Origin: Candidatus Brocadia sinica JPN1
GTDB lineage: Bacteria > Planctomycetota > Brocadiia > Brocadiales > Brocadiaceae
Direction of reading: 5' to 3'
Assembly (NCBI RefSeq): GCF_000949635.1
Contig: NZ_BAFN01000001.1
Span: forward strand, 868,001-932,000
DNA length: 64,000 nucleotides
A program made the position numbers and the translations under genes. The number at the start of each line of letters is the position of its first letter. Position 1 is the first letter of the stretch. Below the pieces are notes generated by a model. It saw only the letters and a list, made by a program, of their open reading frames with translations. It made no database searches and was not told where the DNA came from. This document shows positions 24,324 through 38,389 of the stretch, piece by piece.

Positions 24324-25667
24324 ATGGCATCAATTCGTAAATTTAAGGAATGGACAGAGCCATTTCTTCGTCGTATTTCCCCGATTTTATTCAGGGAACT
24401 TTTGCGTTTTTTGAAGATATATTATTTTTTCTGTCGTGGAAACAAAAAGAAGGAATTGGTTTCACTGCATGTTCAGACCCGCGTGGGTGTAAAGCATTTA
24501 TACAACGCATTTGCCCACCCCAAACGGACTGTTTGGACAACAATGTTTGTTCCCTCAGAAATTCTGTTTCCTATGGGACTCTATCCTTTTTGCCTGGAAA
24601 TTGGCGCTGCACTCTTTGCGGGTCTGGGGCAAAGTTCGCGGGGGCTCATGGAAGCCGAATCGTATGGAGTTCCCACCGATATCTGTTCCTTTCACCGGTC
24701 GGCAATCGGACACACATTCAGAAACCTGTTTCCTAAAAACATCCTTCAGGTAGCCACCACGACGCTCTGCGATAACAACACCAAGACGATGAAGATATGT
24801 GAGTCTGTGACAGGAAAAGAGACCATCGTTATCGATGTACCGTACGAAGCGGATGATTATTCCGTCAAATACCTCACGAAACAGCTTGAGGATTTTACCC
24901 AGCGGCTGGAGGAAGCGACGGGCAGGAAGATGGATCAAGCAGCATTTGAAAAGGCGATTGAATACTCGAATCAGACGCGGGAAAAGATGATCGAAATCAA
25001 TGAATTGAGAAAAGATCCCGATTGTCCCCTTCAGGGCAGCAACGCCCTGGGATTTATGTTTCCCGGATATTTGTTAATTGGTTCCCAGTTATCAGTAGAG
25101 TTTTTCTCCAGCCTGGCTGCAGAATTACGTGAAAAAATCGAAGAGAAGAAAAGAAATGTAAACAGAAAATCTCCGAGAGATCAGATCAGAATTCTCTGGC
25201 TCGAATTGAAACCGTATTTTAAAATTGATTTTTTAACAAAGTTAGAACAGGAACAGGGGGTCAAGATCGTCTTTGAGGAAACAAACTACGTTTATTGGGA
25301 TAAACTGGACCCGCAGAAACCTTACGAAAGTCTCGCCAGGAAACTTATTACCAGCCATTATAATGGTCCGTTAGAGCGTCGTATTGAGGTAACCAAGAAA
25401 CTTGCCCGGGAATATCAGGTGGATGGCGTGGTTGTATTCTCATCGTGGGGTTGCAGAAGAAATAACGCCGCGGTACCCACGCTGAAAAGAGAATTGAACA
25501 AGATAGGTTATCCACTCCTCAGCCTCGACGGAGATTGCGTCGACGACCACAACTACATGCCGGGACAGTTTTCCACAAGGATTGAGGGCTTTTTGGAGAT
25601 GCTGCGCGGAAGGAAAGCCACCACGAATATTTCGCAGCGTGAAATGACCGAAGCCGGTGTAGCCTGA
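24324..25667 (+). CDS. 2-hydroxyacyl-CoA dehydratase subunit D-like protein
   Basis: 447-residue protein of the HgdB/HgdC-partner (2-hydroxyglutaryl-CoA dehydratase D) family, sharing this architecture with the second half of the preceding protein: WTTMFVPSEILFPMGLYPFCLEIGA, ICSFHRSAIGHTFRNLFPKN, and near the end VVVFSSWGCRRNNAAVPTLKRE. Cysteines in ICSFH, LCDN and WGCRRN could hold an FeS cluster. It begins 7 bases after the activase fusion gene, so both are made together. Probably the catalytic partner of an ATP-driven low-potential electron transfer; the substrate may be an acyl-CoA or aromatic compound, not determinable here. Confidence 0.85.
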   Translation: MASIRKFKEWTEPFLRRISPILFRELLRFLKIYYFFCRGNKKKELVSLHVQTRVGVKHLYNAFAHPKRTVWTTMFVPSEILFPMGLYPFCLEIGAALFAGLGQSSRGLMEAESYGVPTDICSFHRSAIGHTFRNLFPKNILQVATTTLCDNNTKTMKICESVTGKETIVIDVPYEADDYSVKYLTKQLEDFTQRLEEATGRKMDQAAFEKAIEYSNQTREKMIEINELRKDPDCPLQGSNALGFMFPGYLLIGSQLSVEFFSSLAAELREKIEEKKRNVNRKSPRDQIRILWLELKPYFKIDFLTKLEQEQGVKIVFEETNYVYWDKLDPQKPYESLARKLITSHYNGPLERRIEVTKKLAREYQVDGVVVFSSWGCRRNNAAVPTLKRELNKIGYPLLSLDGDCVDDHNYMPGQFSTRIEGFLEMLRGRKATTNISQREMTEAGVA

Positions 25668-25768
25668 TTTAATGCACAGGAATTTTCATGCCACAAAGCC
25701 ATTAAGACACTAAACGATCTTTAAATCGTTCTTCATTTACTTTTAAATCGGCTCTCATCTGATTCTTG

Positions 25769-25850
25769 CGAAATTTGTTTCCCTGATAATCTCCATACAA
25801 GTGCCAAGATTGATCAAGAAAACAAAAAACCCGCCTTTTTAGCCACTCAT
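25769..25850 (-). pseudogene. Scrap of a polysaccharide deacetylase gene
   Basis: A stretch of about 80 bases that clearly aligns with 27562-27640, the 3' part of the deacetylase gene on the same strand: matching blocks include TTTCCCTG, AATCT, CATACA, GTGCCA and CCCGCCTTT. It has no open frame of its own. It is a decayed second copy, and places a duplication or deletion boundary about 1.7 kb from the intact gene. Confidence 0.65.
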
Positions 25851-25882
25851 TCCCTGCATAACAGCAACACTATACTCGTTGA

Positions 25883-26362
25883 GAAACGAACAACAATCCG
25901 GGTATTTATCTTTGTAAAGACGGAGATAAATATTGGTACGTTGATAAAATTGTAAAAAGTTATCTTTTTGCTCAAAATCTATGGAAGGAAACAGCATCTG
26001 AATGGCATACATTTAAGGACGAAAATAAAAGATTTTTAAAAAAAATGTCAGAAAAAATAGGCCACTGCCCTTCTGCTCTATATGCTATTTCAAAACTATT
26101 AAATGATATCGGAAGTTCTTATTTGAATGATGGAGTATCTTGGATCTCAGATATATTAAAGAATAATAAAAATTTGCTGAATGCAAAACTAGAAACTAAC
26201 ACTGTTTACTACTTAGAAAATCTTGCTAGAAAATACATTTATGAAAATCGTGAAAAAATAAAGAAAACGAAAAAATTAAAACAAGAGGTTTTAATAATAT
26301 TAGACTTTTTAATAGAAAAAGGATCAGTTGTTGGGTACTTATTGAGAGAGAATATTTTATAA
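25883..26362 (+). pseudogene. 5'-truncated AT-rich gene, unknown product
   Basis: An open frame runs from just after a stop at 25880 to 26362, but no ATG, GTG or TTG is found before the ATG at 26045, and the 54 codons upstream of that ATG read like protein (LCKDGDKYWYVDKIVKSYLF, NLWKETASEWHTFK). No ribosome site precedes 26045. The remaining product is helical and Lys/Asn/Ile-rich (YAISKLLNDIGSSYLNDGVSW). The segment is markedly more AT-rich than its neighbours, suggesting transfer. A truncated immigrant gene is the best reading; a 105-residue protein from 26045 is the alternative. Confidence 0.5.
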
Positions 26363-26460
26363 ACATTGCATTATATTTCTATCAGAAGTTTATTATATAA
26401 ATAAAGAGCTTTAAGATAAACAAATGCAAAATATTACTATAATGACACATAAAAATTCGC

Positions 26461-26517
26461 TACACTTGACCGCTATACCTCTGTGCTTCATAGCGGCAGG
26501 TGAGTGCTGGACGTTAG
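26461..26517 (+). repeat. attC-like hairpin (3' half)
   Basis: An imperfect hairpin: CCGCTAT at 26470-26476 pairs with ATAGCGG at 26490-26496 across a 13-base loop, and CACTT pairs with GAGTG outside it (one G-T). The right side ends GGTGAGTGCTGGACGTTAG, a sequence characteristic of the 3' end of integron cassette attC sites. The matching 5' core could not be found, so it would be a decayed site. It lies in a 480-base gap without genes. Confidence 0.35.
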
Positions 26518-26837
26518 TAACAATATAATCGGTCGACGAATTTATGATCAGTGCGTCACGGTGTAGGGGTCTTTAATCTGTGTGTTCTAATTTGTATTGA
26601 CAACAGGGTTTTGCATGAATAAAGTTATTACTGATGATTAAAGGAAAAGGGATAAAGGTGTCAGAAAAGGACAAAGGTGTTAAAATCTTTATAATTGACA
26701 AATTTGAGCATCCGACCCTGTGAGTTGTCTATCTTGTCGCCTCTATGGGGCAAACCCAAACGTCCGCTCTCTACGCCCCGTCTGTGGTTGCCGCTCAATT
26801 CCGTCATTAGACACGCTACCTAGATAAAATTTAGTAT

Positions 26838-26882
26838 ATGCAATTTGAATGGGACAGGGAAAAAGCAAAAAAATTAGTAATG
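26838..26882 (+). pseudogene. BrnT toxin N-terminal fragment
   Basis: The frame starting at 26838 reads MQFEWDREKAKKLVMN, the hallmark start of BrnT-family ribonuclease toxins, then diverges. Only the first 15 or so codons remain. The following antitoxin-like gene is joined in another frame, so this is a deletion scar fusing the head of one toxin gene to a different gene. Confidence 0.5.
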
Positions 26883-27109
26883 AATTACGCCCAGAATATA
26901 ATTTTGACTATTCAAAGGCAGTTCGTGGCAAGTATTACAAACGCATTTTAGATGAAGGAGCTAACGTTGTCATGCTTGAGCCGGATGTAGCCAAGGCGTT
27001 TGTTGATTCAGCTGCTGTAAATGATGCGTTAAGGTCATTACTTAATTTAACACGAACAACTCAGCGCCTAACAAAGCACTCCAGCAAACGGGCTATTGCC
27101 CGCCGTTGA
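26849..27109 (+). CDS. Antitoxin-like protein, chimeric 5' end
   Basis: 86 residues. From about residue 9 it reads ISNELRPEYNFDYSKAVRGKYYKRIL... VVMLEPDVAKAFVDSAAVNDALRSLL, a pattern common to small antitoxin-like proteins that accompany toxins in mobile loci. The first eight residues come from reading the BrnT fragment out of frame, so the native start is lost and the present ATG may or may not serve. The C-terminal codons and stop run into the attC-like element at 27066-27124, as is usual for cassette genes. No toxin partner remains. Confidence 0.5.
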   Translation: MGQGKSKKISNELRPEYNFDYSKAVRGKYYKRILDEGANVVMLEPDVAKAFVDSAAVNDALRSLLNLTRTTQRLTKHSSKRAIARR

Positions 27110-27124
27110 GTTTTGTCGTTAAAT
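27066..27124 (+). repeat. 59-bp attC-like integron cassette site
   Basis: Exactly 59 bases. The left core GCCTAAC fits RYYYAAC and the right core GTTAAAT fits GTTRRRY. Between them the arms pair as ACAAA/TTTGT, ACTC/GAGT, AAC/GTT and GGGC/GCCC around a TATT loop. This matches the classical 59-base element in both cores, length and folding. It directly follows the antitoxin-like gene and directly precedes a disrupted gene, as expected of a cassette integrated at a secondary site. No integron integrase gene is in the window. Confidence 0.55.
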
Positions 27125-27410
27125 ATGTTCAGGAGGCTTGCGGTACCGCCTATCTTGCAATACTGAAGGCGATCGATGAGTATTTACTGAATAAGGGGCT
27201 CAATAAGAAGGAATTGCCCGATCTGTTAACGCTTATAGGAAGGTGTTGCAAAAATATCTGGGGGTTTATAACGGTAAACTGTTAAAAGAGTTTGAAGACC
27301 TCAATGACGAACTCCATATCGCTGGTTATTATAGGGGAATGCTGCATTCTGTGGGTATAGTCAAAGAAGCTTTGAAAGCAGCAAAGGCTTTTATTGAGAA
27401 AATTAAATAA
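27121..27410 (+). pseudogene. Frameshifted, 5'-truncated DUF5618-like gene
   Basis: Reads KYVQEACGTAYLAILKAIDE, then LLNKGLNKKELPDLLTLIG in one frame, then shifts near 27240 to KVLQKYLGVYNGKLLKEFED... YYRGMLHSVGIVKEALKAAK in the next frame and ends at TAA 27408. This looks like a DUF5618-type HEPN-like helical protein. Its first third is missing; the break coincides with the right end of the attC-like element. Both the truncation and the frameshift make it non-functional. Confidence 0.65.
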
Positions 27411-27438: not shown

Positions 27439-28317
27439 TTACTTAACTAACCAGTTTTTTAAATACTTGTCTTGTCTGGTTAATTGAATCCCTTGCATCT
27501 GCTTCAATTGGGAAAGTATAGATTCCAAATTCTCCAAATTCTTTTTTATTTGTTCCATGGTAAACGGGTTTCCCTGGCAATCTGCATACAGGTGCCAGGG
27601 GTGGATCGAAAATATGAAAAGCCCGCCTTTGGCCACATCTCTTGCACTCAAAACCGCATCAATATAGTCGCTGGAAACCCTTCGGCCTTCAAAAATGGCC
27701 CATAAATAAGAAGACATCCTCTTGCCCTTCGTATCATGAAAAGAAGGCAATGCCAGTTCTAAAAGATTCGAATCAAAGATTTCCAGGGGAAACGGATCTC
27801 CTGTCCATTCAGTACCCATTGTTACCGTCTCAGAGGAATCATACAGAAATCCTTGCCATTCTAAGACTTTTACCACAGTCCGATTGATTCGAGTATAAGG
27901 AGCGCGAAACCCTTTGATATCTCTCTCAAAAATGTTTTCCAGGATATCCTTTGCCTTCGTTATGGCTTCCTCAATGGATTCTTCTTCCATAGGCATGCCG
28001 GATACCTTTCCTAAAAAGTCCTCGTGTTTCAACGAATGACAGGATACCTCATGCCTTTCAGACAACTTTGGCAAATTCATTCCATCTGCAACAAGCATCT
28101 GGGCCGTTCTTGCCTCATAAAATAACGTGGCATCTATATCATATATATCCAATAATTCCAGTATCTTTTGCAATCCCCTTTTGCATGCCCCGATAGTTAT
28201 CTTGCCATGCTCTGTTGGAGAAGAAAGTGCATCATGCCGTCCTTCAACAGCGCTATTAGCATCCGGGTCGATATCCAGAGAGATTGCAACGTATAAAAGT
28301 TCATCAATCTTTGTCAT
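27439..28317 (-). CDS. Polysaccharide deacetylase family protein
   Basis: 292-residue NodB-type carbohydrate esterase. Metal and catalytic motifs are SLDIDPD near residue 13 (Asp pair), HEVSCHSLKHEDF (the H-S-X-X-H-type metal site, here with Cys before His), GFRAPYTRINR and a late IHPWHL with the catalytic His. No signal peptide is visible, so it acts in the cytoplasm or at the inner face. Members deacetylate sugar residues of cell-surface polysaccharides. A decayed partial copy of its 3' end is found at 25769-25850. Confidence 0.85.
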   Translation of the reverse strand: MTKIDELLYVAISLDIDPDANSAVEGRHDALSSPTEHGKITIGACKRGLQKILELLDIYDIDATLFYEARTAQMLVADGMNLPKLSERHEVSCHSLKHEDFLGKVSGMPMEEESIEEAITKAKDILENIFERDIKGFRAPYTRINRTVVKVLEWQGFLYDSSETVTMGTEWTGDPFPLEIFDSNLLELALPSFHDTKGKRMSSYLWAIFEGRRVSSDYIDAVLSARDVAKGGLFIFSIHPWHLYADCQGNPFTMEQIKKNLENLESILSQLKQMQGIQLTRQDKYLKNWLVK

Positions 28318-37792: not shown

Positions 37793-38389
37793 ATGATTTC
37801 TGATTATAAGGTTCTCAGATATGGGGAAGGAGCAAAACCTTCCAGCATCAACAAGGAACTGGCAATGCTTTCAAAGGCTTTCAATCTTGCTGTAAAGGAA
37901 TGGGAATGGCTTAAGGAAAATCCTGTCAGCAAAGTAAAAAAAGAAAGAGAGAACAACCAGCGGGATCGTTGGTTGACAGAGGGCGAAGAAAAGAGACTAC
38001 TTGAAAATTCCTCAAAAAGGCTTCGGAAGATAATCGCTTTTGCTCTTCGTACAGGGTTACGTTAAGGTGAGTTGTTTTCGCTTCAATGGGCCAGGGTAGA
38101 TTTCTCCCGTAAGACAATCATAATTCAGGAATCAAAGAACGGAAAACCAAGAACTATTCCATTAGATCGGGTAGCATTTGACATCCTGGCAGAAAAGTCA
38201 AAGATACGGAATATCAAGTATGACTTTGTATTTATCAGTCGCATTGGTACGAAGATTAACTGTCACAATCTCAGAAGGATTTTTAATATTGCTGTTAAAA
38301 AGGCTGGTTTACAGAATTTCCGTTTCCATGATTTGAGGCATACCTTATTTTCATCAATATTCAAGTGGGAAATCTTTTGGGTTGGATGA
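37793..38389 (+). pseudogene. Broken tyrosine recombinase/integrase
   Basis: Tyrosine-recombinase sequence in a single frame interrupted by an in-frame TAA at 38063-38065, exactly inside the conserved RTGLRxGE motif (RTGLR, stop, GELFSLQWARVDF). Before it is the SAM-like N-terminal domain (SSINKELAMLSKAFNLAVKEW); after it come ISRIGTKINCHNLRRIF and HDLRHT. The C-terminus ends soon after HDLRHT, so the final His/Trp and the nucleophile Tyr are missing. Nonsense mutation plus truncation make this dead. It lies next to a transposase relic. Confidence 0.8.

What the first reader, a model, noticed from the sequence alone, without database searches (positions are those of the whole stretch)
27066..27124. 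Canonical-looking 59-base element outside a recognised integron
Length 59, left core GCCTAAC, right core GTTAAAT, and four paired arm blocks satisfy the attC rules. It follows an antitoxin-like gene whose stop is inside the site, and abuts a gene disrupted exactly there. Integrases can insert cassettes at secondary GTT sites, which would explain the disruption.
Basis: partly seen in the sequence, partly recalled or inferred. Interest (0 to 1): 0.65.

Follow-up and report, generated by a model that had tools for sequence, protein, structure and literature searches.

The report
Integron cassette wedged into DUF5618 gene
The 59-base hairpin is a real integron recombination site (attC) at the end of a small, decaying row of mobile gene cassettes that broke into an ordinary chromosomal gene of an anammox-type bacterium, far from any integron; the kind is known, but the exact integration point can be read here by comparison with relatives.

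Summary
27066-27124 is an attC site: GCCTAAC and GTTAAAT cores, pairing arms, an unpaired base in the left arm. A covariance model built from 16 other attCs finds it as the only strong hit in 64 kb (25.7 bits, E 2.4e-4). Its only other hit, 26447-26519, is a decayed attC in the same locus and orientation.

The cassette ending here carries a BrnT-type toxin-antitoxin pair, intact in several relatives; in the window about 244 nt of the toxin are deleted. Relatives carry this cassette in unrelated places, and complete matches stop at the attC end.

Right of the attC, starting exactly at G|TT (27118|27119), lies the 3' part of a DUF5618 gene. The gene is intact at the same locus in another genus (G030). 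The closest relative (G009) has different cassettes whose last attC stops at the same base of the same gene. The genome holds two full-length integron integrases, about 240 kb or more away.

Best reading: integrase-driven cassette insertion at a secondary (attG-like) GTT site, later decayed into a CALIN. The right junction is shown. The left junction is eroded, and relics of an in-situ integron are not fully excluded. New example of a known process.

The parts
27066..27124 (+). attC site of the BrnTA cassette. R'' 27066-27072; R' 27118-27124, of which TTAAAT is target DNA; crossover point 27118|27119.
   Evidence: Model R1: 25.7 bits, E 2.4e-4. Hairpin. Homologous attCs in about 10 relatives end here and flanks then diverge.
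26807..27118 (+). Gene cassette of BrnT/antitoxin type; left limit placed at the right core of the preceding decayed attC.
   Evidence: 26862-27121 (or most of it) matches 11 or more relatives at 70-90%. Left limit inferred from the 26674-26810 block that ends at 26807-26811 in several genomes.
26849..27109 (+). Antitoxin ORF (86 aa); its last 14 codons and stop lie inside the attC.
   Evidence: No Pfam or NCBIfam family. Position next to BrnT in relatives.
26838..26880 (+). First codons of a BrnT toxin (MQFEWDREKAKK...); about 244 nt of its body deleted.
   Evidence: Intact in L037 (PF04365 E 7.7e-26), similar frames in L040 and L046. In L037 the two flanks of the deletion lie about 244 nt apart in addition to the window distance.
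26674..26810 (+). Decayed attC-type block preceding the BrnTA cassette (L''-like AATTTGAGC, L'-like GCTCAATT, right core decayed to ATTAGAC).
   Evidence: Homologous blocks end at 26807-26811 in 6 relatives. In G009:C41, a contig with an intI fragment and an attC, the block ends at a canonical GTTAGAT.
26447..26519 (+). Second, decayed attC (ACATAAA...GTTAGTA), same orientation.
   Evidence: Model R1 11.3 bits, E 1.7. 83% identical to an attC in the genome's own array at C1:3257385-3257455.
26045..26362 (+). Remnant: C-terminal 105 aa of an Avs4 anti-phage protein.
   Evidence: NCBIfam NF041815 E 7.6e-46, PADLOC Avs4 E 7e-49, last 105 of about 1575 positions.
26589..26626 (+). Upstream (promoter) region of the DUF5618 gene, left side of the insertion.
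   Evidence: 87% over 38 nt to G030:C10, where it lies directly upstream of the intact DUF5618 gene.
27119..27410 (+). 3' part of the interrupted DUF5618 gene; also frameshifted near 27211 (pseudogene).
   Evidence: PF18498 positions 32-60 and 60-120 in two frames. 78% over 297 bp to the intact gene in G030:C10.
24324..25667 (+). Left flanking gene: 2-hydroxyglutaryl-CoA dehydratase D-component family, conserved neighbour.
   Evidence: PF06050 E 3.5e-76; synteny.
27439..28317 (-). Right flanking gene, conserved neighbour (polysaccharide-deacetylase-like by inspection).
   Evidence: Synteny in G009, G030, G003, G004. Family not tested with a profile.

Best explanation
27066-27124 is a genuine attC at the 3' end of a small decaying cassette array without an integrase (a CALIN). 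An integron integrase acting in trans joined a cassette's attC to a GTT triplet inside a resident DUF5618 gene (crossover G|TTAAATATG), as described for secondary or attG sites. The insertion predates or recurred in the closest relative, where other cassettes occupy the same base. The array then decayed: the BrnT toxin lost about 244 nt between short repeats, two more attCs degenerated, and the gene's first codons at the left junction were lost. Shown: the attC, the cassette in different contexts, the exact right junction, the intact target elsewhere, integrase genes in the genome. Inferred: that IntI did it in trans, and the order of events.
For: Model hit E 2.4e-4, with the only other window hit 550 bp away in the same orientation. 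Cassette homologs in relatives end at the attC, then flanks diverge. DUF5618 homology begins at 27117-27119 in three separate relatives' genes. Intact gene at the same locus in G030:C10. In G009 a different attC (12.3 bits, E 0.094 in a 6.5-kb search) ends ATTGTCG|TTACATATATTCAGGAGACTTG, the same base of the gene. Full-length IntIs at C1:3995227-3996162 and C1:653296-654216. The antitoxin with an attC at its end occurs also in contigs labelled Bacteroidetes, Thermodesulfovibrionia, Nitrospirae and Deltaproteobacteria.
Against: The left junction is not preserved: between the DUF5618 upstream region (to 26626) and the decayed attC block (from 26674) the gene's first codons are missing or unrecognisable, so a clean two-sided insertion is not shown. 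The intact G030:C10 gene reads GTA at the crossover; a GTT there is seen only in other DUF5618 genes (G030:C199, G044). attC 26447-26519 lies left of the DUF5618 upstream region, which a single insertion event does not explain. A broken intI lies between the same flanking genes in G004.
Confidence: 0.72

Rival explanations
1. Relic of a sedentary integron: an intI/attI platform once stood between the two flanking genes, the array grew there, intI was lost, and the array's end happens to lie next to DUF5618.
For: CALINs have been proposed to be degraded integrons (PMC9024848). G004 has a broken intI and one attC between the same flanking genes. The intergenic region is an insertion hotspot in the genus.
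Against: G004's intI and attC run in the opposite orientation and share no detected sequence with the window's insert. No intI relic was found here or in G009's locus. The attC abuts the inside of a coding gene at G|TT, and DUF5618's upstream region lies left of the cassette.
Confidence: 0.2
2. The attC-DUF5618 junction arose by non-integrase rearrangement (deletion or illegitimate recombination) and falls at G|TT by accident.
For: The locus has clearly suffered deletions (BrnT body, DUF5618 start, G009's DUF5618 interior).
Against: Two species have different attCs ending at the same base.
Confidence: 0.06
3. Chance hairpin that satisfies the attC rules.
For: The rules alone give at least one hit in 4 of 40 resampled windows; the folding z-score is modest.
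Against: Covariance model E 2.4e-4, cassette homologs with the same attC, covarying hairpins in the training set.
Confidence: 0.02

Closest known systems
CALIN / SALIN (clusters of attC, or a single attC, lacking an integron integrase)
   Same: attC-ended cassettes with no intI nearby, in a genome that has intI elsewhere; decayed sites.
   Different: The array end lies inside an identifiable gene at a readable crossover, shared with a sister species.
Cassette insertion at secondary / attG sites (Recchia et al. 1994; Francia et al. 1993; Loot et al. 2024; known here only through citing papers PMC12901181, PMC12444791, PMC10127599)
   Same: Crossover G|TT in a non-att chromosomal sequence; interrupted gene.
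   Different: Old natural event in an anammox-type planctomycete, not an experiment with IntI1 in E. coli; the left junction is lost; the same base is used in two species.
BrnT (PF04365) type II toxin-antitoxin cassettes
   Same: BrnT toxin followed by an antitoxin in relatives' cassettes.
   Different: Toxin deleted here; the antitoxin matches no Pfam family and its tail is encoded by the attC.

Membership tests
attC site | R'' RYYYAAC and R' GTTRRRY cores at the ends | tested here: met
   GCCTAAC and GTTAAAT
attC site | Imperfect inverted repeat L''/L' with an extrahelical base in L'' | tested here: met
   Left arm ACTCCAGC against right-arm complement ACTCAAC, one extra base on the left; model alignment
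attC site | Score against a covariance model of attCs | tested here: met
   25.7 bits, E 2.4e-4 in 64 kb; E 0.016 in the whole genome. Own model, not IntegronFinder's.
attC site | Recombination by an IntI | not testable with these tools
   Needs an assay
Gene cassette | Same gene + attC unit found in different contexts | tested here: met
CALIN | Two or more attCs, no intI nearby | tested here: met
   Two model hits plus one homology-defined decayed attC; nearest full-length intI about 240 kb away. Only one hit is strong, so a strict caller would report a SALIN.
attG / secondary-site insertion | Right junction at G|TT in non-integron DNA | tested here: met
attG / secondary-site insertion | Left junction at the same G|TT, no loss of target | tested here: inconclusive
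   Left junction eroded; first codons of DUF5618 missing or unrecognisable
Complete integron | intI and attI adjoining the array | tested here: not met
   No TIGR02249 match over the cut-off in the window

The most novel reading that the evidence does not exclude
The GTT inside this DUF5618 gene is a recurrently used secondary site: cassettes entered it independently in two sister species, so one ordinary gene has worked as a substitute attI for integrases encoded elsewhere in the chromosome.
Probability: 0.2. Interest if true: 0.5.

Novelty: new member of a known kind. Interest (0 to 1): 0.36.

Why it matters
It shows how cassettes can leave integrons and lodge in ordinary genes, and gives a natural, comparative case in the anammox order (Brocadiales-like, inferred), where in this sample 26 of 62 genomes carry at least one intI over the cut-off. 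It makes a test possible: whether these IntIs use GTT sites in genes, and whether single attCs elsewhere are footprints of such insertions. Natural cases with an identifiable interrupted gene are useful for calibrating attG rules derived from IntI1 in E. coli.

Tried and rejected
Rfam has no match in the window. BLAST of the site against plasmids gave nothing. A first attC alignment misaligned the arms, so an arms-only alignment with a fixed linker was used; the unfiltered model searches behaved poorly on long loops and did not report the weaker attCs, so the default-filter results are used. I first took 26680-27118 as one cassette with its left end at 26680; this was dropped when 26674-26810 proved to be an attC-type block ending at 26807-26811 in other genomes. 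Homology of 26627-26685 to the DUF5618 start is too weak to use, because 26640-26703 matches an unrelated repeat in G009:C1. A possible third interrupted DUF5618 (G007:C89, match from profile position 31) turned out to be a frameshift without attC. Orthology of attC 26447-26519 with G009's last attC was not accepted (72%, less than the 83% to the genome's own array). Loot et al. 2024 is not held in the library and could not be read.

Full report
The observation. The sequence GCCTAACAAAGCACTCCAGCAAACGGGCTATTGCCCGCCGTTGAGTTTTGTCGTTAAAT is at 27066-27124 as described. It folds on the bottom strand into a symmetric hairpin with 19 pairs. A rule-based scan alone would not be convincing: 4 of 40 Markov resamples of the window also give at least one such site, and the DNA folding energy is only 1.6 standard deviations better than shuffles. 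So I built a covariance model from 16 attCs taken from integrase-linked arrays and other cassettes in this genome and its relatives, leaving out both window sites and the homologous attCs of the same cassette. The alignment supports the structure strongly (30 double-changed cells against 16 shuffled; sliding the partners by one column drops pairing from 85% to 29-42%). With E up to 10, the model finds two places in 64 kb: 27066-27124 (25.7 bits, E 2.4e-4) and 26447-26519 (11.3 bits, E 1.7), both on the + strand and 550 bp apart.

The genome. The window is C1:868001-932000 of a 4.08-Mb genome. It holds two full-length integron integrases over the TIGR02249 cut-off, an intI fragment at C1:3260495-3260890, and a clean attC pair near that fragment. 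None is closer than about 240 kb. In the order, 26 of 62 genomes have an intI over the cut-off.

The cassette. The region 26862-27121 matches 11 or more relatives at 70-90%, and in the complete cases the match stops at the attC end, after which the flanks differ. In L037 the unit is a BrnT toxin (PF04365, E 7.7e-26) followed by a small antitoxin, and similar pairs of frames are seen in L040 and L046. In the window the first 12 toxin codons run straight into the antitoxin: about 244 nt are gone between two AAAGCAAAAAAA-like repeats. The antitoxin frame stays open and ends with a TGA inside the attC. A degenerate pattern for the same antitoxin finds 18 contigs of a genome collection across several phyla. 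In about six of them a good attC covers its end, in others the attC is decayed, yet much of the attC-encoded tail RLTKH...RR often persists.

The target. DUF5618 homology begins at 27117-27119, at the G|TT of the right core, in comparisons with three genes (G030:C10, G001:C84, G030:C199). In G030:C10, of another genus, an intact DUF5618 gene lies between the same two neighbours, and 38 nt of its upstream region (87%) are found in the window at 26589-26626, left of the cassette. The window's gene is therefore split, and is also frameshifted near 27211. In G009, 94% identical to the window over the left flanking gene, other cassettes (an Unstab_antitox gene, a weakly ParE-like gene, a RelA/SpoT-domain gene) fill the locus. 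Their last attC (12.3 bits) ends ATTGTCG|TTACATATATTCAGGAGACTTG, the same base of DUF5618.

The left side. It is eroded. A block at 26674-26810 is shared with several genomes, and its right end falls at 26807-26811 in each complete case. In G009:C41, a contig with an intI fragment, it ends in a canonical GTTAGAT, so I read it as a decayed attC of a preceding cassette. Between 26626 and 26674 the first codons of DUF5618 are lost or unrecognisable. Further left lie the second attC (26447-26519) and the last 105 aa of an Avs4 defence protein. Colinearity with G009 stops at 25900.

How it works. The best-supported account is integrase-mediated insertion in trans of a cassette at a GTT in a resident gene, followed by array turnover and decay. 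That IntI1 recombines at degenerate GTT-like secondary sites is established (PMC10127599; attG sites as cited in PMC12901181, and PMC12444791). For this organism it is inferred. The rival, a relic integron in situ, is kept because G004 has a broken intI between the same neighbours. But that intI and its attC are in the opposite orientation and not homologous to the window's insert, so I consider it an independent insertion in a hotspot.

Verdict. The finding is a natural, partly eroded example of a known process; the shared integration base in two species is its most unusual feature. One shared ancestral insertion is the simpler account of that; two independent insertions are not excluded.

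Noticed in passing
L130, L134, L135, L143, L145, L149, L151, L157, L159 and others (own genome C1:2648619-2649025, 2972722-2972853, 2650578-2650718; G001, G002, G004, G009): A conserved sequence TTATACTGGAAATATATACTAATCTCAAAACCTTCTAATTCATACTTGCGTTATTGATAAA directly follows the G|TT of many different attCs in five genomes of the genus. It may be the right flank of an attI, a conserved cassette leader, or a preferred target.
   Followed up: partly
window 27066-27109; L108, L109, L110, L112, L113, L116: The attC encodes the last 14 codons of the antitoxin. Much of the tail is kept in several phyla even where the attC has decayed.
   Followed up: partly
window 26045-26362: C-terminal 105 aa of an Avs4 anti-phage protein remain as an open frame without the rest of the gene.
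   Followed up: no
L083 (G004:C1:286000-295000): Between the same flanking genes, G004 carries a broken intI and one attC in the opposite orientation, and the stretch contains two c-di-GMP-I riboswitch-type aptamers in near-repeat sequences.
   Followed up: partly
window 25740-25900: A partial, diverged copy of the end of the right-hand flanking gene (27439-28317) sits next to the left-hand flanking gene, a duplicated remnant.
   Followed up: no
window 37967-38350: A tyrosine recombinase with an internal TAA, a broken phage-type integrase (PF00589 91 bits).
   Followed up: no
L009 (own genome C1:3312355-3312401): A decayed attC 83% identical to the window's site, with both cores mutated.
   Followed up: no
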